A stretch of 64,000 nucleotides of DNA from Cytobacillus firmus. GTDB taxonomy: Bacteria > Bacillota > Bacilli > Bacillales > Cytobacillaceae. This document shows positions 14,814-64,000 of this stretch, piece by piece. A program made the translations under genes and the position numbers. The notes below the pieces were generated by a model. That model ran no database searches. It worked only from the letters and a program-made list of their open reading frames with translations, and had not been told where the DNA came from. Each line of letters starts with the position of its first letter. The stretch's first letter is position 1. The stretch is from NCBI RefSeq assembly GCF_023657595.1, contig NZ_CP098323.1:2814001-2878000 (forward strand). The letters are read 5' to 3'.

Positions 14814-14827
14814 AGCGAGGTGATTGA

Positions 14828-16163: not shown

Positions 16164-16168
16164 ACAAG

Positions 16169-18226: not shown

Positions 18227-18282
18227 CCTGATTTGGATCCAATAGTGAAGATGAAGATAATGCGAAGTGTTCTTCTGGAGGA

Positions 18283-18902: not shown

Positions 18903-19466
18903 CTACTCTTTCTTCCTTTCAATGATATAGTTACGCTTCCCTTTTTTAACCGAGTATGTATCGGTGGTTCTTTCCATAATAAAGCTGAAAGTGTTTTCCT
19001 TTCGTTTGGATATTCTTGATGCCAGTATCTCTGTCCGGTCATATTTCATAGAGACCTCTTTTTCAGCCGCATTCAGTTTAAAACAATGACCGCCACTCAC
19101 ATAAACGTTTGAGGTATTATAGCCCTCTGGCATGATGGCATCCACATGATGAAGCGCAAACCACACACACTCATCGTGGCCAGGCGATGTATGAGAAAAC
19201 CAATACATGTCCATCCCACCCGGAATTCTTACAGGGGCAGATCTGCAGGGTCCAAGTATGGTTTTCGAACCGCTCGATGCACCATTCAGATCAAAGCCAT
19301 AATAATTGATGCTTTCATCTATGATCTCAATCGGTTTCTTGTTTACCATAAACGTATAATTCCCTTCCAAAACCAAACTGCAGCATTCACCTACTTCGTT
19401 ATAATGGGCCCTGATTGATTTCGTTTCCGGTATGATGATATACTCCCGTATTAGTAATGCATTCAT
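18903..19466 (-). CDS. comK: ComK-family competence transcription factor
   Basis: A 187-residue protein recognised as ComK from the collinear core: LVLEGNYTFMVNKKPIEIID, then INYYGFDLNGASSGSKTILG, KAPVRI-like SAPVRIPG, and the CVWFALHHVD segment. Length is close to that of B. subtilis ComK (192 aa). ComK activates DNA-uptake genes by binding paired AT-boxes. The C-terminal tail here is basic (KKGKRNYIIERKKE). GGGAGG precedes the start. The intergenic region holds a hairpin and an A/T-rich AAAANNNNNAATT-like motif that could take part in autoregulation, which is inference. Functional competence cannot be concluded from this gene alone. Confidence 0.85.
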   Translation of the reverse strand: MNALLIREYIIIPETKSIRAHYNEVGECCSLVLEGNYTFMVNKKPIEIIDESINYYGFDLNGASSGSKTILGPCRSAPVRIPGGMDMYWFSHTSPGHDECVWFALHHVDAIMPEGYNTSNVYVSGGHCFKLNAAEKEVSMKYDRTEILASRISKRKENTFSFIMERTTDTYSVKKGKRNYIIERKKE

Positions 19467-19516
19467 TGTAATTAATATCCTCCCTTATACTTCACTATTT
19501 AAAAAATGTAAATTAA

Positions 19517-19548
19517 GGAGTATACTAACTTATGAGCTGGTATACTCC
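19517..19548. other. Hairpin in the comK leader region
   Basis: Perfect nine-base arms GGAGTATAC and GTATACTCC around a 14-base loop, about 50 bases upstream of the comK start. Read on the minus strand it is followed by TTAATTTACATTTTTT, so it may attenuate read-through from the DndB-like genes into comK. Confidence 0.45.
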
Positions 19549-19562
19549 ATCTCAACTAGACT

Positions 19563-19603
19563 CTCAGGCTATCGTCTTCCCGGACCCGCCTGAGGGTTTT
19601 TTT
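19563..19603 (+). terminator. Plus-strand terminator between comK and the DndB-like genes
   Basis: Arms CTCAGGC and GCCTGAG followed by GGTTTTTTT on the plus strand. No plus-strand gene precedes it, so it either ends an unannotated RNA or works as a bare hairpin for minus-strand transcripts. Confidence 0.6.
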
Positions 19604-19620
19604 ATGCTGTTACATCATGC

Positions 19621-20655
19621 TCACCTCCTTTTCGTCTCCAGCCAATAGGCAATCTTCTCTATATTTCTCTTGCTTTTATCAAGGTAAAAGAATTCTCCTC
19701 TTGCAACTCCGTCAAATCTTCTCCACTCCGGATTCGTGCTGCTCCAGTTCACTTCTTTTAAGCTATCCATTCGTTCAATCAGACTTTCTTTTTTGACTGA
19801 CAGTGATTGATATCCCCAGTCTTTCATAGCGTATAAGGATATGGCCTGAATAAGCGGAAAGCTCGCCAGCATGGTTTCGTGATAGTTTCCGATTCTTTTA
19901 GGAGATTTAAAGTTGAAGAGTTTATCAAACCAGGAATTTACGATATCCTTATAAGCTTCATCCTCTCCCCCGGCAATCTCCTTCCATTCATCCGATCTGT
20001 TTAACAGCTTGCCTGCCAGTAAAGTGGCCACAAGCAAGCGCAGCTGGGAAAGTGAAAGGAACTTTTTATTAGCCGGCCGAATAATAGCCCTTTTTTCAGT
20101 TTCCACACCTGCTTCTATCAGCTTGGCATTGGATTGAAGAATCCGGTTTGTCATCCCGTTTAAACGGTCTCTCGAATCATAGGCGATTCGCTTGGACAAT
20201 GCCACCTGTTTCCCTTTTGTGTTTAAATCAATAAAAAGCTGGTTTTCCTCATCCATGGAGAGTCCTTCAAGGACCTGAATAGAGATCTCTGTCTTCTCCA
20301 GCAGATATTGAAGATAATAAGCATTCCGGATTTCTTCGTCCTTCTCACTTTTCATACTCATGAAAATTTGATCCTCAAGCTGAAGCAGGGCTTTCATCCG
20401 GTGTGACCCATCTACAATTCTTAATCCGCCTGGCGTTTGCCCTCCTAACATCCCCTCTTCTGCTGCGGCAACCAGCGGCGGCATATATATTTCTCCTCCT
20501 GCAGCATTCGAGAAGATATACTTTTTAATCCGTCTGACCTGAAGCTGATTCGTGTCTCTCAGAATAAGCTTTTTTTCTTTATGCATTTTGACCAGTTCGG
20601 AAACAGGCAGCGCTATAAAAGCCTGCCGCTTAGTGAAAATATCATGAACAATCAC
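19621..20655 (-). CDS. DndB-like / DGQHR-family protein (second of pair)
   Basis: A 344-residue protein of the DndB/ParB-like superfamily. The core motif is VDGSHR (81-86), a variant of DGQHR, followed by the family block NQLFIDLNTKGK near residue 150 and a helical C-terminal half. DndB in phosphorothioation systems is a DNA-binding repressor of the dnd operon, with a ParB/sulfiredoxin-like fold. The GTG start overlaps the stop of the upstream paralogue (GTGA), so the pair is translationally coupled. No cysteine desulfurase, dndC, dndD or dndE lies nearby, so a regulator role in DNA sulfur modification is unlikely; the function is open. Confidence 0.72.
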   Translation of the reverse strand: MIVHDIFTKRQAFIALPVSELVKMHKEKKLILRDTNQLQVRRIKKYIFSNAAGGEIYMPPLVAAAEEGMLGGQTPGGLRIVDGSHRMKALLQLEDQIFMSMKSEKDEEIRNAYYLQYLLEKTEISIQVLEGLSMDEENQLFIDLNTKGKQVALSKRIAYDSRDRLNGMTNRILQSNAKLIEAGVETEKRAIIRPANKKFLSLSQLRLLVATLLAGKLLNRSDEWKEIAGGEDEAYKDIVNSWFDKLFNFKSPKRIGNYHETMLASFPLIQAISLYAMKDWGYQSLSVKKESLIERMDSLKEVNWSSTNPEWRRFDGVARGEFFYLDKSKRNIEKIAYWLETKRR

Positions 20656-21746
20656 GGCTTCAGCCCTCCCTGTACGATTTTCTTTTTGAATTCCAATGAG
20701 GTCTGCTGGATTTTTCTCGTGGCTGAATGGCCTTTAATTTTCGAAGCCGCCGGGTCAAACAGGTGACGGAACAACGGATCATCGTGCTTCCAGCTGCACT
20801 CGAATTTTAAGTGTTTGAGTTCGTGTATAGATTCTTTGTAGGATAAGTTATGAGTCCTGGTCAGCTGATTGGCACAATAGGCAAGAGCAATTTGCACCCC
20901 TGAGTAACCGCTTACAAATTTAAGTCTATTGGCGCTTTTCTTCGGGAAAATCTGCTGCCATATCTGAAAAAATTCGATTGCGATCTCTTCTGCTTCCTTC
21001 GGGTTGCATCTATAATACGGGGTACCTTTTTTTACTGTTAAAATACCTTCAAATAAGGCAATGATACATCTCCTCATGGTGGCTAACGATGTAAGTGCGG
21101 AGTTGTGAACGGAAATTCTGGAAAGGTTTTGTTCTATTTCAAAGATAGGCTGAAGCTTTGCTGCTACGGTTCTTGTCATCTCCGTATATTGGTCACGCTG
21201 ATCATAGAGCATAACCTGCCCGATATGAGCATCTCTTCTTTCCGTATTTATATCAGTAAAAAGCTGCCTCTCCTGTGTTGTTGTCAAATTCAGGAATACC
21301 TGCATGGCAACGGGATATTCTTTCACTCTCTCAATATAGGTCTGCAGGATAATGGCTTCATCCAGCCTGCCTGTTTCCTCCGCTGATTCTTTTCTGGATT
21401 TAAGATGGCTTATGGCAGATGAGAAACTCGCGCTGCGATGCTGTCCATCAATGATGTAAAGCTTGCTTCCGGGAGTCAGTTCCCATCCATCCTCCGTTTG
21501 GCGAATCGCGCCTCTGGCCGAAAACACAAATGGGGAAAAGTAAAAATCTTTGCCTTCTTCAAGCGATTGGATGATAAACTCTCTGATCTCCACCCGCCTT
21601 TTTGGATCCAGCTTTCTCTGAACTTCCTCATCCACTTCAAATATCGCTTCCAAAGTCGCATATCGCAGCTGAGTGACTAGTACTTTTTTACCAAATTGAT
21701 TGTATGCCGAGCCCATAATTCTGGTTAATACGCCAATATCTGTCAT
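20652..21746 (-). CDS. DndB-family DGQHR protein (first of pair)
   Basis: A 364-residue DndB-like protein with the canonical IIDGQHRS at about 99-105 and RQLFTDINTERRDAH near 170, the two blocks that define the DGQHR group. ATG 21746 (MTDIGVLTRIMG) is chosen because GGGGTGAG lies just upstream; the ATG at 21776 has no ribosome site. It shares fold and motif order with its downstream neighbour but is clearly diverged, so the pair is an old duplication, perhaps forming a heteromer. An Fnr-like palindrome lies about 190 bases upstream. There are no other dnd or pgl-type genes in the neighbourhood. Confidence 0.8.
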   Translation of the reverse strand: MTDIGVLTRIMGSAYNQFGKKVLVTQLRYATLEAIFEVDEEVQRKLDPKRRVEIREFIIQSLEEGKDFYFSPFVFSARGAIRQTEDGWELTPGSKLYIIDGQHRSASFSSAISHLKSRKESAEETGRLDEAIILQTYIERVKEYPVAMQVFLNLTTTQERQLFTDINTERRDAHIGQVMLYDQRDQYTEMTRTVAAKLQPIFEIEQNLSRISVHNSALTSLATMRRCIIALFEGILTVKKGTPYYRCNPKEAEEIAIEFFQIWQQIFPKKSANRLKFVSGYSGVQIALAYCANQLTRTHNLSYKESIHELKHLKFECSWKHDDPLFRHLFDPAASKIKGHSATRKIQQTSLEFKKKIVQGGLKP

Positions 21747-21869
21747 ATTTCTCACCCCGAGATTCATTATAGGCATGTTGTCTGATTATTGTAAAATCAT
21801 TTTTCACCATCACACTCGCTCCGTTCTTTCAAAGGCCTGATTTTGATAAGTCAGCCTGCTTTCATACCA

Positions 21870-51900: not shown

Positions 51901-51990
51901 GTTGATTTCCGCTGCAGGATGCTCAGCGAACCGCGGGGCGGGAGGTGAGCATCCTCGGCGCACAGCGCCTGTGGGGTCTCATGTGCAGCC
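51901..51990. repeat. GC-rich dispersed repeat at the acoR break
   Basis: About 90 bases of sharply higher GC than the surroundings, with perfect inverted arms GGATGCTC and GAGCATCC around CGCGGGGCGGG and a TGTGGGGTCTCA segment. This resembles the GC-rich dispersed repeats often seen in Bacillus intergenic DNA. It abuts the point where acoR homology stops, suggesting it took part in the rearrangement. Confidence 0.55.
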
Positions 51991-51991
51991 T

Positions 51992-52300
51992 CTCTAGCAG
52001 GTTGGTCAGTTCTCTTATGTTTCCCGGCCAGTCATAGTCTCTTAAACTAGTCATCAGATCTTGAATGTTCATGCGATTTAAGCTCCAGTTGTTTCTTCGG
52101 CAAATATACTTAATAAGATACGGGATATCTTCTTTTCTATTTCTTAAAGGCGGAACATCAATCGGATATACATTTAACCGGTAATAAAGGTCCTCGCGGA
52201 ATTCTCTCCATTTTACAAAATCTGTAATGTCACGATGTGTGGCCGTTATAATCCGGATATCCAAAGGTACTTCTTTAGTGCCGCCAATCGGAGTAACTGG
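51992..52300 (-). pseudogene. acoR: Internal fragment of the sigma-54 activator gene acoR
   Basis: About 100 codons of a bacterial enhancer-binding protein AAA+ domain: PIGGTKEVPLDIRIITATHRD, then FREDLYYRLNVYPIDVPPLR, RKEDIPYLI, and YDWPGNIRELTNLLER, the canonical sigma-54-activator blocks (sensor I, R-finger, sensor II). The GAF/ATPase 5' part, the GAFTGA region and the C-terminal DNA-binding helix are missing. On its 5' side it is fused to acoA; on its 3' side it runs into a GC-rich repeat. In B. subtilis acoR follows acoABCL, so this is the distal relic of the locus. Confidence 0.87.
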
Positions 52301-52895
52301 ACTTACAGCTCGATGCGTACGAAAATGGAGTCGCTTCTGCATATCCATTATTTTCAGCAACAAAGACAACCGGAAGCTTCCAGATCGTAGCCAAATTAAT
52401 TCCTTCATGGAAAGTTCCATGATTCTGAGCACTGTCACCAAAAAAGAAAACGCTTACATTATCGGTCTTTTTATACTTGGCTGTTAGTGCTGAACCACAT
52501 GCAAGCGGATATCCTCCACCTACAATGCCATTGGCTCCAAGCATGCCTTTATCAAAATCGGCAATATGCATGGATCCGCCCTTTCCTTTACATAGCCCTG
52601 TAACTTTTCCATAAATTTCAGCCATCATTCCATCCAAATCACAGCCTTTAGCAATGCAGTGCCCATGTCCCCGGTGGGTGCTTGTTATACTGTCTTTGTC
52701 ATTTAAATGAGCACAAACCCCAACAGTGACCGCTTCCTCCCCAGCATATAAATGAACAAATCCCGGCAGGATTCCTTTTGCAAACAACTCATGAACTCTG
52801 TCCTCGAAATTTCGGATTTCAACCATTTTTTGATAAATCCACTGGGCTTTTTCCTTCGTTAAAGCTACATCTTTACTGCTTTCCAATGCTTTCAT
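52300..52895 (-). pseudogene. acoA: Truncated acetoin dehydrogenase E1 alpha gene
   Basis: About 195 codons of the thiamine-diphosphate-dependent E1 alpha subunit: FVHLYAGEEAVTVGVCAHL, RGHGHCIAKG, the GGSMHIAD stretch, GIVGGGYPLACG, the TPP-binding GDSAQNHGTFHEGIN and VFVAENNGYAEATPFSYASSC. Homology ends abruptly there and the frame passes into acoR sequence, stopping at 52275. The intact protein would be about 330 aa. GGAGGCTGAAAAA precedes the start, so the fragment could still be made from its sigma-54 promoter if a functional activator existed elsewhere, but it cannot be active. Confidence 0.9.
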
Positions 52896-53037: not shown

Positions 53038-53309
53038 ACTTTTGTTTCTATTAAAAAGGGTTTCTATTTTGCAAACGGAAGAAGCCTGCCAGCTTACCTC
53101 CTGCCCCGTTCCCCTAAATTAATCCCAATCCCCATTTATATAACTGCAATCAATTAAATTATGAATATTTTAATTTGTTAATATTATAAAGATAACTTCC
53201 TCTAATTAAAATCGGAAAAGTCTGATTATTAAAATGAAACTGAGTTCCGCTTTTAAAGTTGAACTGAGCATCCACAATAAAACATGAATAAATGTGCAAA
53301 ATAACAAAA

Positions 53310-53348
53310 CGGCTCTCTTGCTTTCTAAGTGAAAGCAAAAGAACCGTA
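53310..53348 (-). terminator. Terminator of the helicase operon
   Basis: Seventeen-base arms around TAAGT (core TTGCTTTC / GAAAGCAA, extended by ACGG / CCGT), then TTTTGTTATT on the minus strand. Confidence 0.75.
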
Positions 53349-53430
53349 CCTATTACACCGTTCATAGTCTGGAATACAGAAGGATAAAACATATTAAACT
53401 TTTCTGTTTTGATTAGCTTTCTTTTTATGC

Positions 53431-56097
53431 TTAAAACCTCTTTGTTAATGCAATTGAAGACAATACATTCTCCAACAACTGAACCCCGCCCACTTTATCA
53501 AGATTTTCATTGCCCCGTTCACAAATTGATAAGTGGGTACAGTTAGGACAACCATCTTCACATTCACAAGCTTTTAAGATTGCTAATGCTTTTTTTAAGA
53601 TATGAGATAATCTTGATTCTATTGCTTCCATAATCCCTGCGCCTCCACCATCTGCTTCATAACAAACAATAGTTGGAAGATATTCAAATTCCTTTAAATT
53701 ACTCGAAGATATTAAAGAAAAGTCACTATGGGAGCACTTGACGATTGTAGGTATTGCTGAAGCAATAGCATGCTCCAGTACATGCAACGCTGACTCATTT
53801 ATTTTTTCTGATGGGAATTGAATCCACAACCCATCTGTTGAGTATTTTACCGGATACATATTACTGTCTTCGATAAGATCTGATGTGCCTCCACCAAATA
53901 GGTTTACTTTCTTATATCCCCATAATCTCATTGTAATCACGAGTTTTCCTTTTCCTAATTCCATTAAATCATTAACTGGCTGAGTGGAGACTTCTCCTGA
54001 GACGTTTATTGAATCATTAACTTGTCCTCTTGTTGTATAATCAGCCTTAAAAGGGACAGTCCATACTTCATTTTTATTGGATAAGATTCGCGTTACCTTA
54101 TAGGTTTTTTGGTTATAAAGAAACACCGAACCGTAATGATAATCCCTTAGTAATGACCTATCATCCACTCCCTCAAACAGAGCTTCTTTTGTGGATTGAT
54201 TTATGACAGTGTAGACTCTACCACCTTTTAATAGGTTATTATATATCACATTTTTATCTATTAGCTCCCACAAACCTCTATTTATTTCTTTCATCTTTTC
54301 AACAAAGCCATCAGCTTTCTTAGCAGCAGAAACTTTAAAGTAATTATGTGGGGAAGTCAATTTTCCATTAACTTCAAATGCAGCATATTGCATATGTTCA
54401 GAAACAATAAGAGGATTTGAAACATCAATCGTCACATGTTCAGATTTCCGTTCCATAAATTCCACAGGGTTGGCTGCATAATATTGCTCCAAAGGGTCCT
54501 CTTGAAAAATTTGTATTATTAATCCAGGACCTTTCCTTCCTACTCGACCAGCTTGCTGCAAAAAGCTAGCTTTGCTCCCGGCGTACCCGATCATTATACA
54601 TAAACTTAAATCTCCAATATCTATGCCCATTTCTAAGGCTGAAGTTGACACCAGACCCACCAATTCTCCTTTCTTAAGTTTGTCCATAACTTCTTGCTTT
54701 TTGAAACCGTTTAATTGAGCATGGAATGGTGAAAAAAGTTCCAAAGGTATTTCTTTATTCTGCATTACCTCCGCAAGTCTAGATCTTACTGCACTATTTA
54801 ATTCAAAGCTAGCATTCGTTGCCGCTTTTCTATTTCCATAAAAGAGAATAGACTTGGGAAGCATACGGTATGATGCTGCGATTGACTTTAAGATTTCTAT
54901 AGCCTCTGAGATAGGCGCTCTTCTAGTCCTTTGCTCTGATTTTTGGCCAAGAAATCCCGGATTCCATAATAATATTTCCTTTTCATAAGCAGGGCTCCCA
55001 TCATCGTCAATTAAGGAAAAGCCATTTCTACCCTTTAATCCTGTAATTTCCTCTGCATGCTCCTTGGGATTCCCTATAGAAGCAGAACATGCGATAAATT
55101 GAAGGTCAATATTTCCAAGAGCTTTGCATAAGTTCCTGAGGCGCCTCAAGAGCATTGCCACCTTTGAACCAAGAATGCCGTTATAAGCATGCAATTCATC
55201 TATTACAACATATTTAAGGTTTTTAAAAAAACGAATATACCTGCTTTTGTGTTTAAAATGTACTGCACCTTGAAGAATAAAGTGCAGGAAGTGTGCATTA
55301 GTCAACCAATATCTTGCATAATCATAAGTTAATTCCTTTACAGAATCAGACTTTCCTCCTTCGAGTACCCCAGCACTTACTTTTTTCCCTCCCAATGAAA
55401 TAGTTCTGTATCCAAAAGAATCTTGACTTTCAGTTTCATTATCATTAAATCTATCTAATGTCAGAAGCTGATCGCGAGTAAGCGCTTTAAGCGGTGACAA
55501 ATAAAGAACAGTTGCATTCTCATCATTTAGAAATGTTTCTAGTGCTGGTATTGTGTACACCATAGACTTTCCGGAAGCAGTACCTGTTGTAATGACTACA
55601 TTTTCACCATTTCGTATACGATTAATTGCTTCAGCCTGATGAGAGTATAGTTTTTCAATACCTATTTTTTTTAATTTGTTTGCTAAGGAAGAAGGCAAGT
55701 CTTTCTCAAGTTCCCCATACCTAGCTGACTTCGAATTAATATGGTATCTCTCAACAGAAGAACCTATCTTATTACTTAGGGAGGTTAGAGTTCCTACTAC
55801 CTCGTCTAGTGATTGATCTTTAAATGACCAGGTCTCCATTCTGTTATCTGCGAGTAAAGCTAATTCATCAAATGTTAAAAATTCTTCATTTAAACTCTTA
55901 TGGCAGTTTTCACAGTATATCCCGTCTGGAGTATTATCCATATTATCATTATCTTTAATCCACGATTCAACATGAAGACCATTAGAAGGCTGCTTAATCA
56001 GCCTTCTATAAGGGATACCTTTGAACTTTCTACTAATCTGATAAAAATATAACTGCTTTTGTTTTGCTGTATGGCAATTTATACATACTAAAGGCAA
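53431..56097 (-). CDS. DEAD/DEAH-box helicase with DUF1998 domain (second of pair)
   Basis: An 888-residue superfamily 2 helicase of the YprA/MrfA type. N-terminal Cys pairs (CINC and CENC, residues 5-8 and 62-65) suggest a small zinc motif. Helicase motifs: TGTASGKS (about 171-178), VVIDELHAY (DELH), CSASIGNP and QAGRVGRKG. The C-terminal DUF1998 region ends with a four-Cys cluster, ACECEDGCPNCTHLSICERG, likely an iron-sulfur or zinc site. It would move on or unwind nucleic acid using ATP. Its start overlaps the preceding helicase gene by 10 bases, so the pair is coupled. The substrate and role are unknown; MrfA in B. subtilis is a DNA repair helicase. Confidence 0.9.
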   Translation of the reverse strand: MPLVCINCHTAKQKQLYFYQISRKFKGIPYRRLIKQPSNGLHVESWIKDNDNMDNTPDGIYCENCHKSLNEEFLTFDELALLADNRMETWSFKDQSLDEVVGTLTSLSNKIGSSVERYHINSKSARYGELEKDLPSSLANKLKKIGIEKLYSHQAEAINRIRNGENVVITTGTASGKSMVYTIPALETFLNDENATVLYLSPLKALTRDQLLTLDRFNDNETESQDSFGYRTISLGGKKVSAGVLEGGKSDSVKELTYDYARYWLTNAHFLHFILQGAVHFKHKSRYIRFFKNLKYVVIDELHAYNGILGSKVAMLLRRLRNLCKALGNIDLQFIACSASIGNPKEHAEEITGLKGRNGFSLIDDDGSPAYEKEILLWNPGFLGQKSEQRTRRAPISEAIEILKSIAASYRMLPKSILFYGNRKAATNASFELNSAVRSRLAEVMQNKEIPLELFSPFHAQLNGFKKQEVMDKLKKGELVGLVSTSALEMGIDIGDLSLCIMIGYAGSKASFLQQAGRVGRKGPGLIIQIFQEDPLEQYYAANPVEFMERKSEHVTIDVSNPLIVSEHMQYAAFEVNGKLTSPHNYFKVSAAKKADGFVEKMKEINRGLWELIDKNVIYNNLLKGGRVYTVINQSTKEALFEGVDDRSLLRDYHYGSVFLYNQKTYKVTRILSNKNEVWTVPFKADYTTRGQVNDSINVSGEVSTQPVNDLMELGKGKLVITMRLWGYKKVNLFGGGTSDLIEDSNMYPVKYSTDGLWIQFPSEKINESALHVLEHAIASAIPTIVKCSHSDFSLISSSNLKEFEYLPTIVCYEADGGGAGIMEAIESRLSHILKKALAILKACECEDGCPNCTHLSICERGNENLDKVGGVQLLENVLSSIALTKRF

Positions 56098-58784
56098 TTA
56101 AGTTCAGCCCCCTTTATACTATTCTTGATAGAATGGCTAAGCAACAGAAGGATAGCCTTTGCACCTATCTTTGAAAGATGGTCATTGTCCTTACCCGGGT
56201 ATTGAATGCATGAAGGGCATCCGCCAGAGCATGAGCAATTGTTCAAGAGGTGAATTGCACTTTTCGATATCCTTTCTATATGTTCACCTATCGCTTTGGT
56301 TGTACCCATTCCTCCTGATTGATTACCATAAAAACCAATAACAGGCTTATTAGCAAACCCAGAAACAGATAGCCCTGAAAAACCGGAGATATCATTTGCA
56401 TCACAAATGATGGTATCCGGTATAACTGACAGTAAAACATGCTCAGCAGCGCGTATAGACCCATCCAGTTTTTCCTCAGTGTAATCCAATCCTAAAGCGT
56501 ATTTTACTTCTTGTATTAACTCATCAGATAACACTACCCACATGCCTTCTGCATCAAAATCAGCTACCAATGGAGGATTGAGATTCTCGACATCAGGAAC
56601 ACGGGAACCAAAATATGATTTATTGAATCCAAATATTGACCTTTTTATATTTAAAATGCCAGTAGATTTTATAACCTTTTGGCTTTCCTGAACAGATATT
56701 TCCTCTGAAACATTTATAAAGTCTTTAAAAATAGATTGAGTATAGTATTCTATCTCTCCCCGTATCGGTGTCACAAGAATTTCTAATTTCTTGCGATTAA
56801 TACTATCAACCCGATAACCCTTTTCATTAGCATTCCAGTAGATGGCACCCTCATGAAAATCCCTGAATGCAGTCCACTCATCAATACTTTCTAGTAATAC
56901 ATCCCGCGATTTTGTGACCACGACCTTGTAGCTTTGCAAAGATCCTGATCTTAAACTACACCTTGGCAATTCTTCCTCATTAGGTGGTTCTATATTTTCA
57001 AGTAATTGTTTAGAAACTTCATCATTTACCAAGAAAATTTTCAAATCCTCTATTGACAGCGGTCTACCAAGTTCTTCCTGCAGATAAGCAAGATGCAGTT
57101 TTAATAGTTCTGCGTTTTTTGGATCAATTCTTACAACTTCTGGCGGCTTTTCCAAGAAGGTATTTGGATTTTGCATGTAATACTGCTGAAGCGGCTCATC
57201 TTCAAAAATCATGACTGCCACCCCTTCACCTTTTCTCCCAACTCGGCCTATTTGTTGCGAAAACGCAGCCTTACTCCCAGGATAACCGCTTAAAATCGCA
57301 AAACTTAAGTCTCCGATATCAATTCCAACTTCTAGAGCATTAGTGGCTATTACTAAATGGACATCACTTTTCTTAATTGCATTAATTACCTGCTTTCTCT
57401 CATCAACACCTAGCATGCCATTATAAAAAGCAGACAACTGGACCCCTGCTACATTTTCCTTTTTTAGTTTTAGCTTTTTTCTTAATACATCTTTCATAGA
57501 ACGAGCTGTTACTTTCCCTTGCAATCTGGACCCCTGGAACATAATTGTCCGAATGATTTTTTCTTCATGCACAAGAACATTTTCAGCAATGGAAATAGCA
57601 TCCGATACAGGTGCTTTACGCACTCCTGTATCCAGGGTTACTCCTGGATTCCAAAATACGACATGACGTTTCCTCTTTGATGATCCATCGTTGTCCACTA
57701 AGGTAAATTCACTTTTCCCAGTCAATTCCTCAGCTAATAGTTTCGGATTCTCAATCGTGGCTGAACATAAGATAAATTGGATATCGTGATTACCCAGTTC
57801 CTCACAAATCTTCCTTAACCTGCGGATGACCAATGAAACATGACTACCAAAAGCCCCTCTGTACAGATGCATTTCATCTATGACAATATACTTCAAATTT
57901 TTTAGAAGGTTACAGACGTGTTTGGAAGTTTGATGGTTTCCTTGAACCTGCCTCAAAATAGAATGATGAATCATATCTGGGTTTGTAAACAGAATTCTGC
58001 CATCCTTCAACAACCTTTTTCTTGATCCTGGCTGTGTATCTCCATCAAGACGCCCATAAGGAAGGTTTGTAGAACCTAATCGGATAGTTCTTTCGAACCA
58101 CTCATCCTGCTCGAAAAAATCTTCTTCAACCTTTTCCCCTGTCCAACGATATAGCTGTTCAACTTGATCATCAGCTAAAGCTTTTGTTGGGAAAATATAT
58201 AATGCTCTTGCATTTTCATTCTCTAATAGCCCATGTAAAATAGGTAAATTAAATGACAGTGTTTTTCCTGAAGCAGTCTGTGTAACAAGCACAACATCCT
58301 TGTTTTTTCTAACTGCATTATATGTATCAGCCTGATGGGTAAAAAGGGATTCTATATTCATCTGTTTGAGGGCATGGCATAAACTTTCTGGCAATTCATC
58401 GTAAATCTCCCCAAAAACAGGATCACTCTCCGGAATGCTATGGACGAATATTTCAGCACGCTCCTTTTGGCTCACCTGCTTCAATTTTTCGATAACTTCA
58501 ATGGAATCAAACTCACTTGAGCTTAGCCCTGGAATTCTTTTATCCAATAAAACTTCAACTTCTGCGGGATCGATTGATATCTCATTATGACATTTAGGAC
58601 AATAGACGGCATCGTCTTTATTCTTCATCCATTCGTTTGCTTCATCAATACCCCTCCATGAACCCGCTTCCAAAGCAGCTCCCACTTTATACTCACAAAG
58701 CCTATATTCACCTGCAGATAATACCTTTCGACTCAACTGATAACCTTTTAGCAATGAACCGCAAGTACACTGTAGATATGGCAT
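56088..58784 (-). CDS. DEAD/DEAH-box helicase with DUF1998 domain (first of pair)
   Basis: An 898-residue helicase with the same plan: N-terminal Cys motifs (CTCG and CPKCHNE, residues 6-9 and 62-68), Walker A TQTASGKT (168-175), VIDEMHLYRG (DEMH 303-306), FILCSATIENP (SAT 341-343), QQIGRVGRKGEG, and a C-terminal Cys cluster NNCSCSGGCPSCIQYPG. It is a diverged paralogue of the 53431-56097 protein, and the two may act as a complex. The ribosome site GGAGGAAG is strong. A complete IS21 element now lies in its promoter region, between -35 and -10. Reported relatives include repair helicases and subunits of phage-defence systems. Confidence 0.9.
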   Translation of the reverse strand: MPYLQCTCGSLLKGYQLSRKVLSAGEYRLCEYKVGAALEAGSWRGIDEANEWMKNKDDAVYCPKCHNEISIDPAEVEVLLDKRIPGLSSSEFDSIEVIEKLKQVSQKERAEIFVHSIPESDPVFGEIYDELPESLCHALKQMNIESLFTHQADTYNAVRKNKDVVLVTQTASGKTLSFNLPILHGLLENENARALYIFPTKALADDQVEQLYRWTGEKVEEDFFEQDEWFERTIRLGSTNLPYGRLDGDTQPGSRKRLLKDGRILFTNPDMIHHSILRQVQGNHQTSKHVCNLLKNLKYIVIDEMHLYRGAFGSHVSLVIRRLRKICEELGNHDIQFILCSATIENPKLLAEELTGKSEFTLVDNDGSSKRKRHVVFWNPGVTLDTGVRKAPVSDAISIAENVLVHEEKIIRTIMFQGSRLQGKVTARSMKDVLRKKLKLKKENVAGVQLSAFYNGMLGVDERKQVINAIKKSDVHLVIATNALEVGIDIGDLSFAILSGYPGSKAAFSQQIGRVGRKGEGVAVMIFEDEPLQQYYMQNPNTFLEKPPEVVRIDPKNAELLKLHLAYLQEELGRPLSIEDLKIFLVNDEVSKQLLENIEPPNEEELPRCSLRSGSLQSYKVVVTKSRDVLLESIDEWTAFRDFHEGAIYWNANEKGYRVDSINRKKLEILVTPIRGEIEYYTQSIFKDFINVSEEISVQESQKVIKSTGILNIKRSIFGFNKSYFGSRVPDVENLNPPLVADFDAEGMWVVLSDELIQEVKYALGLDYTEEKLDGSIRAAEHVLLSVIPDTIICDANDISGFSGLSVSGFANKPVIGFYGNQSGGMGTTKAIGEHIERISKSAIHLLNNCSCSGGCPSCIQYPGKDNDHLSKIGAKAILLLLSHSIKNSIKGAELNCL

Positions 58785-58839
58785 ATATCTTCCTCCAAAT
58801 TTATAAATTGATATTCCAATAAAATTCTAAAATATTGTA

Positions 58840-58870
58840 TTTATAGTATACCAGAAATAGGCAGTGTTAA
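58840..58870 (-). promoter_or_regulatory. Helicase operon promoter, interrupted by IS21
   Basis: The -10 TATAAA is at 58840-58845. Removing the IS and one target copy restores TTGACT exactly 17 bases upstream (its TTGA now lies at 60966-60969 on the far side of the IS). At the present junction the hexamer reads AACACT. The IS end offers TTAACA at a 19-base spacing as a possible substitute. Confidence 0.5.
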
Positions 58871-58954
58871 AGCCGATGTTAAAATCCCCATAATAGCCGG
58901 AATAAAATTCCCCATCTAAAATAGAACCATAGTGATTGAGAGGAGCTATGGTTT

Positions 58955-60157
58955 GTGAAGACTAGAGGGGAATTTTTTATGATTAAGGAAATGTATAAGA
59001 GAGGTATGAGCATTTCAGACATAGCAAGAGAGCTGAAAATGGACTGGAAGACAGTAAAAAAATACATCAGTTCAGCTACGGTACCCACTGGAAAGAAAAG
59101 AAAAAGAAGCAGTAAACTTGATGCCTTTAAAGATTACATTGATAGGAGAATGATGGAAGACCAGGTATTTAACTCGGAAAAGATTCTTTCAGAAATTAAA
59201 GCACTAGGTTATCAGGGGGGCAAAACCATATTAAAAGACTACATGCAGCCTTTTAGGAAACAGGCCAAAAAGAAATATACGGTCCGTTATGAAACCCTTC
59301 CGGGTCAACAGATGCAGGTAGACTGGAAAGAAGTCGGAGAAGTCATCCTTGATGGGAGAAAGGTAAAGCTATCAATGTTTGTAGGCATTCTCGGATATTC
59401 CAGGATGAAATACGCAGCGTTCACCTTATCTCAAGATCAAGAACATGTAATGCAATGTTTGATTAACAGCTTCAAATATCTTGGAGGAGTCCCCTCCTCT
59501 GTATTGTTTGATAATATGAGGACGGTCACGGATGGCAGGGATCAAGGAATAGTTAAGTGGAATAAACGATTCTCGGAATTCGCAGCCTACTATGGTTTTA
59601 TTCCAAAGGCCTGTAGACCTTACCGTGCTCAGACAAAAGGCAAGGTCGAAAGAGCAATCCAGTATATCATGAATAACTTTTACAATGGAACGAAGTTTGA
59701 GAGCCTGGAGGAATTAAATCAACTTCTTTTTAGGTGGCTGGATGCAGTAGGAAATCGAAAAAGAAACGAAACAACCGGTTATTCTCCACAAGAAAGGTGG
59801 ACAGAGGAAAAGCTTCAGCCCATTCATGATAAGAAAGAATATGATACTAGTTATATTTCTTTTAGAAAGGTCCATTGGGATTCGAGTTTCTCTTATAAAG
59901 GCGAACACTGGATATTGTCCTCTAAATATGCAGGAAAAGAGATTTTAGTTAAGGAATCCTTGGCTGGTTCCATCAAGATATTCTACCAGGGAGAGGAAAT
60001 TGGAATTCAGCAACGACGTAAAAAGATAATTCCATTCTCCGAGAAAATAAAAAAGAAACAGACTGTCGTGGTTGGCGCCCCTCAGCCTGTTTCTGTGGAA
60101 GTGGATACACGTTCCCTTTCAATCTACGACGAATTCACCAAAGGTGAATCCTCATGA
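58955..60157 (+). CDS. istA: IS21-family transposase IstA
   Basis: A 400-residue DDE transposase. The N-terminal helix-turn-helix is RGMSISDIARELKMDWKTVKKY (shortened as ISDIARELKMDWKTVKKY). The integrase core has D123 in MQVDWKEVG, D186 in LFDNMRT and E232 in KGKVERAI, so the catalytic triad is complete. GTG 58955 has GAGGAGC eight bases upstream; ATG 58979 with GAGGGG is an alternative. Its stop overlaps the istB start (ATGA). Confidence 0.92.
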   Translation: MKTRGEFFMIKEMYKRGMSISDIARELKMDWKTVKKYISSATVPTGKKRKRSSKLDAFKDYIDRRMMEDQVFNSEKILSEIKALGYQGGKTILKDYMQPFRKQAKKKYTVRYETLPGQQMQVDWKEVGEVILDGRKVKLSMFVGILGYSRMKYAAFTLSQDQEHVMQCLINSFKYLGGVPSSVLFDNMRTVTDGRDQGIVKWNKRFSEFAAYYGFIPKACRPYRAQTKGKVERAIQYIMNNFYNGTKFESLEELNQLLFRWLDAVGNRKRNETTGYSPQERWTEEKLQPIHDKKEYDTSYISFRKVHWDSSFSYKGEHWILSSKYAGKEILVKESLAGSIKIFYQGEEIGIQQRRKKIIPFSEKIKKKQTVVVGAPQPVSVEVDTRSLSIYDEFTKGESS

Positions 60158-60900
60158 GAAAGAAAATAAGGGAATATAGCCACAAGTTGAACTTGCCCGT
60201 AATAGCGGACCGATGGTCCATATTGGCCGAGCAAGCATCTAAAGATAATGTACCATATTCGCAGTTTTTATTCAGCCTTCTTGAATTAGAAATCATAGAA
60301 AAGCAGGAAAGAACGATGAAGACACTGCTAAAGTTTGCGAAATTTCCTTACAGGAAAACGATGGACGATTTTGATTTTACAGTACAGCCAAACATTGATG
60401 AGAGAAGGATTAAAGAGTTAATGAATCTGTCCTTTTTAGAGGAAAATGAAAACCTTATTTTCCTCGGGCCACCTGGCATAGGAAAAACTCACCTAGCAGT
60501 GGCGATTGGACTTGAAGCAGTTTCGAAGGGGCTAAAAACCTATTTCATTACATTGAGTGATATGGTTTCGCAATTAAGAAAAGCAGAACAGAACGAGAAA
60601 CTTGAAAGAAAGATACGATCGTTTGTTAAACCTTCAGTTTTGATAATTGATGAAATAGGATACCTTAACCTAGATCCTCAAAGTGCTCATTACCTGTTTC
60701 AAGTAATTTCAAGAAGATACGAACGTGGCTCGATTATACTTACCTCCAATAAAGGGTTTGGTGAGTGGGGAGAAATGGTGGGAGATCCCATTATTGCGAC
60801 AGCTATGCTAGACCGTCTTTTACACCATTCAAGGATTTTCAATCTAAAAGGTAATAGTTATAGGCTTAAGGAAAAGCAAATGAAGACACAGAAGGACTGA
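60154..60900 (+). CDS. istB: IS21-family AAA+ ATPase IstB
   Basis: A 248-residue AAA+ helper protein that selects target DNA for IstA. Walker A is FLGPPGIGKTHLAVAIG (about residues 106-122), Walker B VLIIDEIGYL, and the sensor region shows IILTSNKGFGEWGE with GDPIIATAMLDRLLHHS, the classical IstB tail. It starts inside the istA stop codon, giving coupled translation. Confidence 0.94.
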   Translation: MRKKIREYSHKLNLPVIADRWSILAEQASKDNVPYSQFLFSLLELEIIEKQERTMKTLLKFAKFPYRKTMDDFDFTVQPNIDERRIKELMNLSFLEENENLIFLGPPGIGKTHLAVAIGLEAVSKGLKTYFITLSDMVSQLRKAEQNEKLERKIRSFVKPSVLIIDEIGYLNLDPQSAHYLFQVISRRYERGSIILTSNKGFGEWGEMVGDPIIATAMLDRLLHHSRIFNLKGNSYRLKEKQMKTQKD

Positions 60901-61217
60901 AAAGTCCTTCTGGGGAATTTTAAACCGGCGATTTTGAGGAAGATACAACCGGCCTTGACAGGCAGTCAAAAATTTAGTAAGGTTATTTGATAAACTGAGC
61001 AAATAACACGGGTATATGGTTGTGTTTCTTTGCTTCCTCATGGTTCCTTACTGTTCTAACCTGTAAATATGAACTGAAATAATCAACGAGCACTATTTTT
61101 CAGTATAAAATTAATTTCTTTCAAAAAAATTGCACCTAAATTTTTTATAATGCTTGCCTTTAAAAATATAGTAGAAAAAAAGGGAAAGTCCTCTATATAC
61201 CTAAGTGGAAACAAAAT

Positions 61218-61253
61218 AAAAACAGCATGCCTAAATTGTCATGCTGTTTTTTT
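61218..61253. terminator. Bidirectional terminator between the 61.3-kb remnant and IS21
   Basis: Arms AAAAACAGCATG and CATGCTGTTTTT with a ten-base loop. It separates the two helicase genes from the upstream genes, so each has its own transcription unit. Nothing else was seen between the IS end and 61260. Confidence 0.75.
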
Positions 61254-61260
61254 ATAATTA

Positions 61261-61670
61261 TTAATGAACCATCAATAAAGCATCTTCAAACGGAGCAAAA
61301 AACTTCCCCTTAGGTGCGATACAATCGCTATCCTGAAATCTTGATTCTCCATTCACTTCATAACTGCCTTTTGAAAAAAAATCAAACAAGCCACATTCTT
61401 TATACATGCTGATAAACTCGGCCTGCAATTCTCTTAATAACTGGTAATATCCCTTTTCATCCATAAATGTCGTTATCTTCATCAAGAATAAAGTTGCATT
61501 TTATTGCTTCTTGAAATTCTTCATAATGCTCAGTTGCAACCATTATGTTTAACTGGTTTTTGTCAATAACATTGAATCATTCTTATTTGGTCATAGGCTC
61601 CTTTTACAATATTTAAAAGGATGTCTTCAATCTCTTTTTCTTTAGTGAGGTTCATTGTTGTATTTAACAT
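61261..61670 (-). pseudogene. Frameshifted remnant, possibly a GAF-domain protein
   Basis: Three consecutive minus-strand segments in different frames form one plausible protein: MNLTKEKEIEDILLNIVKGA, then VIDKNQLNIMVATEHYEEF, then the 74-codon frame 61261-61485. The first two recall a GAF domain (..EVLE.IL..VVKGAY...Y.iD). Each junction requires a frame change, so the gene is broken. The last segment has no recognisable relative. The family link is weak. Confidence 0.35.
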
Positions 61671-61685
61671 TCTGGTAATCCCATT

Positions 61686-63281
61686 TTATGTAGTAGGCCA
61701 GTTAAAATCTTTTTTGTAATAAAGCTTTTTAAGTTTCGCTAAATCGTGTTCCCATTCTGTTATGGCATGATGAAATTTATTTAAGCCATTCTTTTGGCCT
61801 TTCCTCAATTTAACATTATATGCGATGGTATAGGCAATTTTCTTCAGTCCTAGCTTTGGTACTGCCTTGTCAAGGATTTCCCATCTTCTAGCTCTCGTTA
61901 ATCCGCTAATTTGGTATCCCATCATTTTTAAATCACTTTCTTCATTTAGTACTTTCTCATCAGATTCTACTACTGTTGATTTATTGTCTTTAACTTCTGT
62001 ACTTGGCCAGACAAATGAACTTGTGCTTATGGAGGTAACAGCACCTGGCACTATTTCTTGGTAAGACTTGCACTTCATTTTATCTTTTTCGATAAATGCC
62101 TTTCTCCTGTTAGAACTTACATATAAATCTGACTCCACATAACGCTCAATCATCTGGTCACTTCGATATTTAAAGAGAGGCAAAGAACAATATCTTTTCT
62201 TCAGTTTGTACTTTTCAGTCAAATAAGTAATTAGTGTTGAATCTACACTGTATAAATCATTTAGAAACTTCAGAGGTTCGGGCTGGTTCTTTATAGCTTT
62301 CACTTTATTGATAATGGATTCCTTCTCAAAGTCTAATAGTGTGACGGCTTGTGTGAATTGTAAAATCTCGTCTTGTAAACCAGCTTGGCCATCCTGTCCT
62401 TCATCCGAAATATAATAATACAGTGAAATACCTTTTGATTGTTCATCAAACCACCTTAAACTATCACCACCAACATCGATAAGATCTCCGTCCAAATTAA
62501 ACAAGAAACAATACCAAAGAAAAAAAGTGAAATCATCACGAGTTAAAGAACTATCAAGAAAGCCCCATTCAACATCCAAAATATGATTTAACGCTGATTT
62601 AACCTCATCTTCCAATCTATATGAAAATAGTAAACGCAAATATTTCGTTATGATAACAGGCTCATTTAAAAGAAGTACGAAATCGAACATTTTTTCGTGA
62701 TTTTCTTTTAAGAAATTATAAATGGCATCATGAAGATTAGATGACCTAAGTCCAACTAATATATCATAGATACTCTTTATCATATTGTCATATTTCTCAT
62801 CAGTGGCTGCTTCTTCTTCTCCAAGAACAATCATCTTTATTAGAGCAAGTAATCTCTTAAATATTTCTCCATTTTGATTAATGATTAGGTGCTGGTTATG
62901 ACAAAGCAGATCTAGTATGTAATTTAACATCTCAAAGTTTTTGTCTCTATATAATTTTTCACAGACTGTTAACAATAAAATTGCATCATGGGAGGAACTA
63001 GATAGGAACCATTCATCGATTGCATCATATGTAATTCCACCGCTTAATCGCTCAATAAAATGTGGTAACAAATCATTAAAATTACTCTGAAGCTGAACAC
63101 TAGATTCTGCTTTGGCAATAAGAGTCCTTAAGTTACTGTTCTCCTTCTCAAGTGACTGAATTTTATCTGCTAGTTGTGTTTTTTCTTTCTCTAATGTATT
63201 AATTTGTTGTTCATATGGATGAAGCAACTTACTTATTTCACCCTCCAGTAGTCTCAATATTCTCTCTTTAGCCGCAATCAA
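61686..63281 (-). CDS. Unrecognised protein with coiled-coil N-terminus and conserved-looking C-terminal domain
   Basis: A 531-residue protein, TTG start with GGGGGGAG just upstream. Residues about 15-60 form a coiled coil (QQINTLEKEKTQLADKIQ). The middle (70-400) is helical with many Leu/Ile pairs and no enzyme motif seen. After a flexible, Ser/Glu-rich linker (about 415-455), a compact basic C-terminal domain begins at LTRARRWEILDKAVPKLG and continues with KFHHAITEWEHDLAKLKKLYY, a pattern suggesting a protein- or DNA-binding module. It lies between the PAPS-reductase-like gene and the helicase genes on the same strand. Function unknown; a structural or adaptor role in the same system is only inference. 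Confidence 0.62.
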   Translation of the reverse strand: MIAAKERILRLLEGEISKLLHPYEQQINTLEKEKTQLADKIQSLEKENSNLRTLIAKAESSVQLQSNFNDLLPHFIERLSGGITYDAIDEWFLSSSSHDAILLLTVCEKLYRDKNFEMLNYILDLLCHNQHLIINQNGEIFKRLLALIKMIVLGEEEAATDEKYDNMIKSIYDILVGLRSSNLHDAIYNFLKENHEKMFDFVLLLNEPVIITKYLRLLFSYRLEDEVKSALNHILDVEWGFLDSSLTRDDFTFFLWYCFLFNLDGDLIDVGGDSLRWFDEQSKGISLYYYISDEGQDGQAGLQDEILQFTQAVTLLDFEKESIINKVKAIKNQPEPLKFLNDLYSVDSTLITYLTEKYKLKKRYCSLPLFKYRSDQMIERYVESDLYVSSNRRKAFIEKDKMKCKSYQEIVPGAVTSISTSSFVWPSTEVKDNKSTVVESDEKVLNEESDLKMMGYQISGLTRARRWEILDKAVPKLGLKKIAYTIAYNVKLRKGQKNGLNKFHHAITEWEHDLAKLKKLYYKKDFNWPTT

Positions 63282-63416
63282 AATACTCCCCCCAAAAATA
63301 CTTTAAATAATTTATGGTAAATAAAAAAAGAAAATCAATCAAACGAAGAAAAATTAGTACTTCTCTTTTAAAAAAATACCTAATATGCTTAGCTTAAAAA
63401 ATTATCTTATACAGAA

Positions 63417-63443
63417 AAGGGAAGAACCAGTGGTCCTTCCCTT
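63417..63443 (-). terminator. Terminator of the PAPS-reductase-like gene
   Basis: Thirteen-base arms (AAGGGAAG.ACCA, one mismatch), followed on the minus strand by TTTTCTG. Confidence 0.7.
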
Positions 63444-63453
63444 CATTCACATT

Positions 63454-64000
63454 TTAAGAATACGAACAAACACAAGGTACAGCATCGTCCTTAATATTAA
63501 GGTACTTCTCCACACCATCTTGTTCCAATTGTTCTCTATATTGTTTTAAAGTGAAAGGACCGCCGTCTTTTTTCAAAATAGATACATCCTTTTCAAAATG
63601 CTCTCTAAAACGTTCTTCCATTTCTTCTTGTTCCTTATATCTATCTGGCCAAATCGCATAAAGTAATGCGTAGTGTTGATATCCGCCTCGAACACATCTT
63701 CCTCCGCAATTAGCATGAGAAAAACCTTTGATCCCTTTAGCAGCAAGATCTGGTCGAACTTCACTTGTAATGTTATACATCCTAGGCAGCTGGATGCCCC
63801 ATTCATTCTCAATAATCCCCTTTATATCAATATCTTCAGTAAAGGTATCAATCATTGGAAATCTTGTTTCAATTGGTTCTAGCGGGTGGTGTTTATAAAA
63901 CTCCGTTAAGTTGTCTGCACGGTGTTTTTCGTGTGGTCCAATTCCAAAATACAAAATTGGCTCAAGGTTTTGTTCATCTCTAAGTTCTTCTAAAAAAGTA
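63454..64000 (-). CDS. PAPS-reductase-family (PP-loop) protein, 5' end outside window
   Basis: C-terminal 181 codons of a phosphoadenosine-phosphosulfate-reductase-like protein. The frame is open to the window edge and reads LRDEQNLEPILYFGIGPHEKHRA, matching the ILYFGI..xEKHRA segment of this group, then WGIQLPRMY, GFSHANCGGRCVRGGYQHY (a Cys-containing block usually HNNCGGFCVKAG) and PDRYKEQEEMEERF. The protein ends CVCSYS. The nucleotide-binding PP-loop lies outside the window, so activity cannot be judged. Relatives include assimilatory reductases and the DndC protein of DNA phosphorothioation; the C-terminal layout here is not that of DndC as far as can be seen. Confidence 0.75.
   Translation of the reverse strand, partial: TFLEELRDEQNLEPILYFGIGPHEKHRADNLTEFYKHHPLEPIETRFPMIDTFTEDIDIKGIIENEWGIQLPRMYNITSEVRPDLAAKGIKGFSHANCGGRCVRGGYQHYALLYAIWPDRYKEQEEMEERFREHFEKDVSILKKDGGPFTLKQYREQLEQDGVEKYLNIKDDAVPCVCSYS

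What the first reader, a model, noticed from the sequence alone, without database searches (positions are those of the whole stretch)
53431..64000. Candidate new defence or DNA-processing island: twin DUF1998 helicases, a coiled-coil protein and a PAPS-reductase-like enzyme
Four large minus-strand genes with DNA-related flavour sit together: two tandem YprA/MrfA-like helicases, an unrecognised 531-residue protein with a coiled coil and a compact basic C-terminal domain, and a PP-loop PAPS-reductase-family protein. They are mixed with an IS element and a broken gene, next to a deleted metabolic locus, which is the usual look of an accessory island. DUF1998 helicases and PAPS-reductase-like proteins both occur in known anti-phage systems (DISARM, Druantia; Dnd), but I know of no described system with this combination. 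Co-function is inference: internal terminators show at least three transcription units.
Basis: partly seen in the sequence, partly recalled or inferred. Interest (0 to 1): 0.75.

Follow-up and report, generated by a model that had tools for sequence, protein, structure and literature searches.

The report
Composite defence island with twin helicases
These genes are the tail of a bacterial anti-virus island: the sulphur enzyme belongs to a known DNA-sulphur-marking defence system, while the paired helicases and the coiled-coil protein are separate, apparently undescribed modules found beside various other defence genes.

Summary
The four genes are real but are not one system. The PAPS-reductase-like gene is sspD, the last gene of an sspFGH-sspBCD phosphorothioation defence operon that continues past 64000; all six proteins match Ssp models. 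The twin helicases (HelA, HelB) are a separate two-gene cassette: paired in 8 of 8 loci found, overlapping by 10 bp in 6, in two sister clades outside the housekeeping MrfA, each with its own N-terminal Cys pairs. Their neighbours differ: Ssp, type II RM, PglZ/DrmD, McrBC, a UvrD-like gene, or (L159) nothing recognised. HelAB has its own leader and terminator; an IS21 element sits in its upstream region. The 531-aa protein belongs to an unnamed family (17 of 193 family genomes, partial matches counted) with a conserved ~90-aa C-terminal module; 18 of 25 scanned loci have a defence-model hit nearby (three doubtful), and a matched comparison gave 7/10 near versus 1/10 far. Of 14 other SspC-bearing family genomes, none matched the 531-aa protein or HelA (E<=1e-118). 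'Defence island' is right; 'new four-gene system' is not. HelAB and the 531-aa family are the new parts; their functions are inferred.

The parts
53431..56097 (-). HelB: YprA/MrfA-family SF2 helicase with MZB domain and an N-terminal CxxC...CxxC motif (888 aa)
   Evidence: Pfam DEAD, Helicase_C and MZB over cut-off; motifs and Cys pairs conserved in orthologues
56088..58784 (-). HelA: YprA/MrfA-family SF2 helicase with MZB domain and an N-terminal CxC...CxxC motif (898 aa); overlaps HelB by 10 bp
   Evidence: best solved relative MrfA/YprA 6znp, E 2e-102
53309..53347 (-). terminator-like hairpin (17-bp stem, T run) after HelB
   Evidence: L004 3310-3348; the block 53159-53354 is 82% identical in L157
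58785..58864 (-). HelA leader and -10-like region, shared with L157 up to the IS edge
   Evidence: own DNA 97% identical to L157 over 53437-58863
58865..60960 (+). IS21-type insertion sequence (istA 58955-60157, istB 60154-60900) with 50-nt inverted ends and a GGCAG target repeat
   Evidence: family named by eye (IstB-like AAA protein)
61230..61690 (-). degenerate small-ORF remnant between the IS and the 531-aa gene
   Evidence: read by eye from the sequence; no ORF of 80 aa or more listed there
61686..63281 (-).
   Evidence: no known family
63454..64000 (-). sspD (PAPS-reductase-type; 283 aa, start at window position 64305), last gene of sspF-G-H-B-C-D
   Evidence: PADLOC SspD E 2e-10; L005:454-1305

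Best explanation
The stretch is the downstream end of a composite anti-phage island. (1) The PAPS-reductase-like gene is sspD. With sspB and sspC it should put single-strand phosphorothioate marks on host DNA, using sulphur from a cysteine desulfurase encoded elsewhere, while SspFGH damages unmarked DNA. This is the published SspBCD-SspFGH mechanism, assigned here by homology. (2) HelA and HelB are a separate two-gene cassette, probably co-transcribed. My best mechanism is a two-subunit, MrfA-like 3'-to-5' DNA translocase whose extra N-terminal Cys-pair (Zn-ribbon-like) domains recognise the target. Having no nuclease domain found by Pfam, it would unwind or strip invading DNA, or the ends made by whatever restriction system lies next to it. 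Shown: pairing, order, ORF overlap, intact motifs, and siting next to defence genes. Inferred: a heteromeric complex, Zn binding, DNA polarity (from MrfA) and anti-phage function. (3) CC531 is a third, independent module that lies beside many unrelated defence systems. I take its N-terminal part as an adaptor and its conserved C-terminal module as the working part; this step is inference.
For: Ssp: F 1e-234, G 1e-113, H 7e-117, B 2e-57, C 1e-119, D 2e-10 by PADLOC, all intact ORFs in one direction; PF00266 genes, the fold family of cysteine desulfurases, elsewhere in the genome. HelAB: among the 80 relatives kept from genome contigs, the 7 of at least 61% identity all have HelB next to HelA, making 8 of 8 with the window; 10-bp ORF overlap in 6 of 8; sister clades, SH-aLRT 99, apart from 11 housekeeping MrfA and 63 other YprA rows; conserved DNA ends at the IS edge and a terminator follows HelB. 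Neighbours: type II RM (L157), PglZ+DrmD (L158), McrBC+HNH (L160), GajB-like UvrD (L161, L162). CC531: 18 of 25 loci with a PADLOC hit at E<=1e-8 among the neighbours scanned; 7/10 near vs 1/10 far, one-sided p 0.0099; 4 of 4 further loci vs 6 of 30 and 1 of 7 control loci.
Against: HelAB is rare (3 of 193 family genomes; 2 of 397 order genomes; 1 of 398 phylum genomes; the own genome counted each time), so the pairing rests on 8 loci, several of them close relatives. L159 has no recognised defence neighbour (chloride channel, COX1), and the UvrD-like neighbours of L161/L162 are generic helicase matches. Repair of self DNA is not excluded: MrfA, the nearest solved relative, is a repair helicase. 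HelA and CC531 do share two family genomes, own and G101 (0.26 expected, p 0.02), though in G101 on different contigs. Seven of 25 CC531 loci gave no defence hit, and three of the 18 hits are weak or doubtful (G419, G253, G083). The controls come from many phyla, which makes hits to a Bacillota-derived set harder to find there. No function was measured.
Confidence: 0.8

Rival explanations
1. One new four-gene (or larger) system in which CC531 and HelAB are dedicated extra effectors of the Ssp operon, for instance processing DNA that SspFGH has damaged.
For: Same strand and close together in this genome; helicases are plausible partners of a DNA-damaging system.
Against: Of the 14 other SspC-bearing genomes in 193, none matches HelA at E<=1e-118 or CC531 at E<=0.001. 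The nearest relative of the cassette (L157, 97% DNA) lies beside a type II RM system, in a genome (G052) with no SspC match. HelAB has its own leader and terminator.
Confidence: 0.07
2. HelAB is a DNA-repair pair (a second MrfA-like system, for example for crosslinks or for damage caused by the host's own restriction systems) and lies in defence islands only because accessory genes gather there.
For: Best solved relative is MrfA/YprA; PMC12458937 (section 5 read) places 'YprA only' and MrfAB helicases on a DNA-repair branch, and HelAB was not placed on that paper's tree; no nuclease domain in either protein by Pfam.
Against: The genome keeps a separate MrfA-type gene; HelA/HelB are outside its clade and patchy; 6 of 7 other loci adjoin recognisable defence-type genes (L163 by layout only).
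Confidence: 0.3
3. CC531 is a hallmark gene of a mobile element that carries defence genes as cargo, not a functional partner of them.
For: Patchy distribution; neighbours of many different kinds.
Against: Clustering 408 neighbour proteins of 29 fetched loci plus the own island gave no family shared by more than 4 loci, so no common integrase or element gene at that sensitivity. No CC531 in viral contigs (six exact peptide patterns only) or phage records, one weak plasmid-record hit.
Confidence: 0.2

Closest known systems
SspABCD-SspFGH phosphorothioate defence (PMC8092258)
   Same: All six genes sspB, C, D, F, G, H present in one direction and full length; no sspA seen beside them, as described for systems that use IscS.
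   Different: Gene order here is F-G-H-B-C-D; flanked by CC531, HelAB and a PLD-helicase; modification not measured.
MrfA/YprA repair helicase (6znp)
   Same: Helicase core plus C-terminal MZB with Cys set; HelA residues 129-861 match MrfA 39-731 at E 2e-102.
   Different: About 90 extra N-terminal residues with Cys pairs; two different copies in one cassette; no mrfB named among the neighbours scanned; separate clade.
BRIGADE (two YprA helicases, PMC12458937)
   Same: Two YprA-like helicases in one locus.
   Different: Per section 5 of the paper, BRIGADE is found only in halophilic archaea, with a 7-deazaguanine cluster and typically PLD nucleases. HelAB is in Bacillota, and no Dpd-type biosynthetic gene shows among the hits of the ten own-locus proteins scanned.
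DISARM DrmA-DrmB
   Same: A two-gene YprA-type helicase unit in defence islands.
   Different: DrmA is the helicase and DrmB carries the DUF1998 part; in HelAB each protein has both. Among the ten own-locus proteins no DISARM methylase hit shows, and the only DrmC-type match is weak, in the PLD-helicase (6e-5).
PDC-S37 (PADLOC candidate, large helicase-like protein)
   Same: CC531-family genes lie next to PDC-S37-like genes in G148, G330, L250 and L251 (8-bp overlap in L251).
   Different: Most scanned CC531-family loci have other neighbours; in the own locus no PDC-S37 hit shows (lists for the two helicases were cut at 25).

Membership tests
SspBCD-SspFGH | sspB (DUF4007), sspC, sspD modification genes together | tested here: met
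   SspB 2e-57, SspC 1e-119, SspD 2e-10; DUF4007 3e-69
SspBCD-SspFGH | sspF, sspG, sspH restriction genes adjacent | tested here: met
   SspF 1e-234, SspG 1e-113, SspH 7e-117 with FtsK C-terminus
SspBCD-SspFGH | cysteine desulfurase available (SspA or IscS) | tested here: inconclusive
   26 matches to PF00266 in the genome, several strong; the family is wider than cysteine desulfurases and no ortholog was assigned
SspBCD-SspFGH | single-strand phosphorothioate at CCA and SspFGH toxicity to unmarked DNA | not testable with these tools
   needs mass spectrometry and genetics
YprA/MrfA helicase family | SF2 motifs plus C-terminal MZB/DUF1998 with Cys set | tested here: met
MrfAB repair pair | adjacent MrfB exonuclease | tested here: not met
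   HelB, not an exonuclease, follows HelA in 8 of 8; none named MrfB among scanned neighbours, but not every neighbour was scanned
DISARM | split helicase (DrmA) and DUF1998 protein (DrmB) with methyltransferase | tested here: not met
   each HelA/HelB protein has both parts; no DISARM methylase among the hits of the ten own-locus proteins scanned
Druantia (DruE) | DruE architecture (PADLOC DruE models 1460-2055 positions) | tested here: not met
   HelA/HelB are 898/888 aa and match DruE models only in pieces
BRIGADE | two YprA helicases with 7-deazaguanine genes, haloarchaea | tested here: not met
   no such genes among the hits of ten own-locus proteins scanned; definition read in PMC12458937 section 5

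The most novel reading that the evidence does not exclude
The conserved C-terminal module of CC531 is a shared defence-island cofactor: a small plug-in domain, joined to different N-terminal parts (coiled-coil/helical, ankyrin-like) or nearly alone, that connects unrelated systems (Ssp, BREX, DISARM, Zorya, type I and III RM, Leo, PDC-S37) to one common host factor, DNA structure or alarm signal. HelAB would be a second such modular unit, a two-helicase engine that serves whichever nuclease system lies next to it.
Probability: 0.2. Interest if true: 0.8.

Novelty: new variant of a known kind. Interest (0 to 1): 0.5.

Why it matters
The PAPS-reductase gene is ordinary: it adds one more genome to a known phosphorothioation system. 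The two other parts are worth following. HelAB is a two-gene helicase cassette, with N-terminal Cys-pair domains, that I did not find described in PMC12458937 (abstract, section 5 and passages seen, supplements not seen) or in the listings of the searches. CC531 is an unnamed family whose C-terminal module recurs beside many different defence systems in Bacillota; without a name it could not be searched for in the literature. If it is a common cofactor, it would give a handle on how separate systems in one island are sensed or coordinated, which can be tested directly by deletion in strains with a working neighbour system.

Tried and rejected
Rejected: one four-gene system (see rivals). Rejected: the helicase pair as a fixed housekeeping locus. 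HelA-type matches (E<=1e-118) occur in 3 of 193 family genomes; 188 of 193 have some match at E<=1e-60, and for the other 185 it is only MrfA-level, about 35% where listed. Rejected: HelAB as a BRIGADE, DISARM, Druantia or MrfAB member (membership table).

Led nowhere: structure prediction of the CC531 C-terminal module from one sequence (mean pLDDT 50.8) and of HelA from 7 sequences (46.6); neither was used and no fold search was run. PDB sequence search with CC531 (none at E<=1) and with the C-module profile (only E 0.85 and 0.91). Viral contigs for CC531 and HelA: none. The one named plasmid record with a C-module match carries no annotation there. Far side of the island: the EcsC-like gene (named by eye) beyond the NUDIX gene matches strongly only in G048, with broken or partial copies in G033 and G063, and lies elsewhere in G048, so the right boundary was not fixed. 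SspE: the only PF03235 match in the genome is below cut-off (24.7 vs 33.2 bits); that SspE holds this domain is recalled.

Limits of counts: PADLOC scans of CC531 neighbours covered 25 of 33 other CC531 genomes, one to three chosen large proteins each, most within 5 kb and some to about 10 kb. Eight weak or partial loci (G506, G422, G230, G249, G371, G340, G019, G043) were not scanned. The far control was designed after most near scans. In the matched comparison G026 used its second-largest near gene, because the largest spans two fetched stretches. The one far hit was a DrmA match in G025. L163's McrBC-like genes are inferred from L160 by size and position. The labelled set used came from CC531, HelAB and own-island loci, but not from the four loci tested there; it was applied to whole fetched stretches (hits up to about 12 kb away). 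HelA distribution used E<=1e-118; more distant HelA relatives would be missed, and the genome-contig scan needed exact 8-residue patterns.
Full report
WHAT IS THERE. The window is bases 2814001-2878000 of a single 4.98-Mb contig. The four reported genes are intact minus-strand ORFs. Reading past 64000 shows the PAPS-reductase-like gene to be complete (283 aa). It is the last of six same-strand genes whose proteins match, in order, PADLOC models SspF (1e-234), SspG (1e-113), SspH (7e-117), SspB (2e-57), SspC (1e-119) and SspD (2e-10); SspB also matches DUF4007 (3e-69) and SspH ends in an FtsK/SpoIIIE domain. Upstream of sspF lie a 965-aa PLD-helicase that matches a PADLOC Type IV restriction model over its full length (E 0), and a NUDIX-type gene named by eye. 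PMC8092258 (first part, passages and section 9 seen) describes SspBCD-SspFGH as a phosphorothioate-based anti-phage system in which SspFGH damages unmarked DNA; there, too, the sulphur donor can be encoded elsewhere. In this genome PF00266 has 26 matches, several strong.

DO THE FOUR TRAVEL TOGETHER? No. In 193 genomes of the same family the 531-aa protein matches in 17 (E<=0.001, partial matches counted), SspC in 15 (E<=1e-20) and HelA at E<=1e-118 in 3 (the other hits are MrfA-level, about 35% identity where listed). SspC and CC531 share one genome, the window's own (1.3 expected); SspC and HelA share one, again the own genome; CC531 and HelA share two (0.26 expected, p 0.02): own, and G101, where the CC531 piece is on another contig. 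The two nearest Ssp loci (G122, G081) carry other genes after sspD.

THE HELICASE PAIR. A scan of 84,980 species genomes found 99 relatives of HelA and kept 80; 7 have 61-98% identity and the rest 40% or less. The seven are filed as Paenibacillus sp. FSL R5-0490 (L157, the same record as G052 by length and coordinates), Neobacillus citreus (L158), Rossellomorea aquimaris (L159), R. vietnamensis (L160, L163), Fictibacillus nanhaiensis (L161) and F. aquaticus (L162). HelB follows HelA in all seven, so in 8 of 8 with the window; the N. citreus copy is broken by frame shifts. The ORFs overlap by 10 bp in 6 of 8. Walker A, DEMH/DELH and motif VI patterns are present in all 16 rows; the MZB Cys pattern in all but the broken HelB; the N-terminal Cys pairs (CxC...CxxC in HelA, CxxC...CxxC in HelB) in every row with a full N-terminus. 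In a quick maximum-likelihood tree of 88 proteins HelA (7 rows) and HelB (7) are sister clades (SH-aLRT 99), apart from 11 housekeeping MrfA and 63 other YprA; several long branches and uneven letter make-up were flagged in that tree, so the sister grouping is good but not final.

ITS SURROUNDINGS DIFFER. PADLOC scans of 20 chosen neighbours, 10 of them also by Pfam, gave: type II endonuclease and methylase (L157); PglZ, DrmD, an AbiO-like and a Mokosh-like gene (L158); an AAA_5 protein with McrC and an HNH protein (L160; same layout in L163, where the 471-aa gene after HelB is a DUF4062-integrase fusion); a UvrD/GajB-like gene (L161, L162). L159 gave no defence gene (chloride channel, COX1, two unnamed), and L161 also has FeoB nearby. 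The own DNA is 97% identical to L157 from 53437 to 58863, to the IS edge, with GGCAG on both sides of the IS. A terminator follows HelB (14 terminator-like sites found against 7.3 in shuffles). HelAB thus looks like a transcription unit of its own. The IS end supplies a TTAACA sequence 16 bases before the native TACTAT; that this makes a hybrid promoter is a guess (32 promoter-like matches against 43.7 in shuffles).

THE 531-AA PROTEIN. Relatives occur in 17 of 193 family, 20 of 397 order and, with a profile of the C-module, 4 of 149 phylum genomes, own genome counted each time. Conservation is concentrated in the last ~90 residues; in an alignment of 29 rows, positions such as G455, Y456, R466, L470, I507 and D513 are the same in all, and W467, K494, G499, W510 and E511 in 28. 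N-terminal parts vary: coiled-coil/helical in most, ankyrin-like in G506 and G451, short in G101 (109 aa) and G080 (189 aa); in G249 only the N-terminal part occurs, inside a 1201-aa protein with what read like ankyrin and UvrD-type helicase parts (coiled-coil, ankyrin and UvrD labels are by eye). No relative in PADLOC, PHROGs or PDB sequences was found.

IT LIVES WITH DEFENCE GENES. Among 25 loci with scanned neighbours, 18 have a PADLOC hit at E<=1e-8: Leo, PDC-M26A, ZorA/ZorD, type I RM (two), DrmA/DrmB, type III RM, PDC-S37 (two), PglZ/PglX, HEC-05, PDC-S26, DrmC-like, a type II methylase, PDC-S02/REase_II, and three doubtful ones (subtilase G419, weak ZorA-like G253, RtcR G083). Some of these cover only part of the protein. 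Seven loci had none (G118, G132, G025, G421, G002, G298, G451). In ten loci, one large gene within 5 kb gave 7 hits and one large gene at least 12 kb away gave 1 (p 0.0099 one-sided, 0.020 two-sided). Four further loci found later (L249-L252) all have homologues of labelled defence proteins in the fetched stretch (E<=1e-8), against 6 of 30 YprA-locus controls (p 0.0045) and 1 of 7 stretches from relatives and the own genome; the 30 controls come from many phyla, which lowers their chance of a hit. CC531-family genes are sometimes behind the system on the same strand (type I RM, BREX-type, Ssp) and sometimes divergent from it (Zorya, HEC-05). No family recurs in more than 4 of the 30 loci clustered.

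THE SITE. In relatives G047 and G048 the purU-like gene is followed by an aco-type operon (both named by eye); here one of its genes survives as a fragment beside a second, activator-like fragment. In G062, about 2-13 kb beyond the same purU-like gene, lie other large genes, one with a PDC-M26A match, and in G052 HelAB with a type II RM lies beside the same metabolic genes as in the window. The place therefore looks like an insertion hotspot.

VERDICT. Defence island: yes. New four-gene system: no. The Ssp part is known. HelAB is a candidate two-gene defence or DNA-processing module that I did not find described. CC531 is a family without a model in the libraries searched here, associated with defence islands. 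Its function, and any anti-phage effect of HelAB, are inference.

Noticed in passing
window 51923-52895: Two overlapping gene fragments; the 206-aa one matches (95-96%) a 331-359-aa gene of an aco-type operon (named by eye) that relatives G047 and G048 have beside the purU-like gene.
   Followed up: partly
L237 (G062:C1:1354001-1374000) 787-12667: Near the same chromosomal spot a relative carries other large genes, one matching PDC-M26A (6e-51); four others scanned gave no hit: a possible insertion hotspot.
   Followed up: partly
L250, L251, L144, L040: CC531-family genes lie next to PDC-S37-like genes, overlapping by 8 bp in L251; perhaps a true operon partner in this subset.
   Followed up: partly
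L151, L150, L153: The CC531 C-terminal module follows ankyrin-like repeats (by eye) in L150 and L151, and a related short ORF in L153.
   Followed up: no
L104-L108 (G014, G090, G087): Ssp loci with an extra ~1420-aa SspC-like gene and a ~275-aa gene between sspH and sspB; a possible Ssp variant.
   Followed up: no
L101, L102-L103, L104: A second SspD-like gene (33-35% identity) directly after sspD in G178, G023 and G014.
   Followed up: no
window 58843-58870: The IS end puts a TTAACA 16 bases before the native TACTAT of HelA: a possible hybrid promoter, guess only.
   Followed up: partly
window 20652-21776: The only PF03235 match of the genome, below cut-off (24.7 vs 33.2 bits), falls at about window 21240-21587.
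   Followed up: no
L031 and L032 joined, 10487-20358: Two CC531-family genes in one locus (G126), one of them divergent from a PDC-M26A cassette.
   Followed up: no
L163 11883-13298: DUF4062 fused to a phage-integrase domain in the gene after HelB.
   Followed up: no
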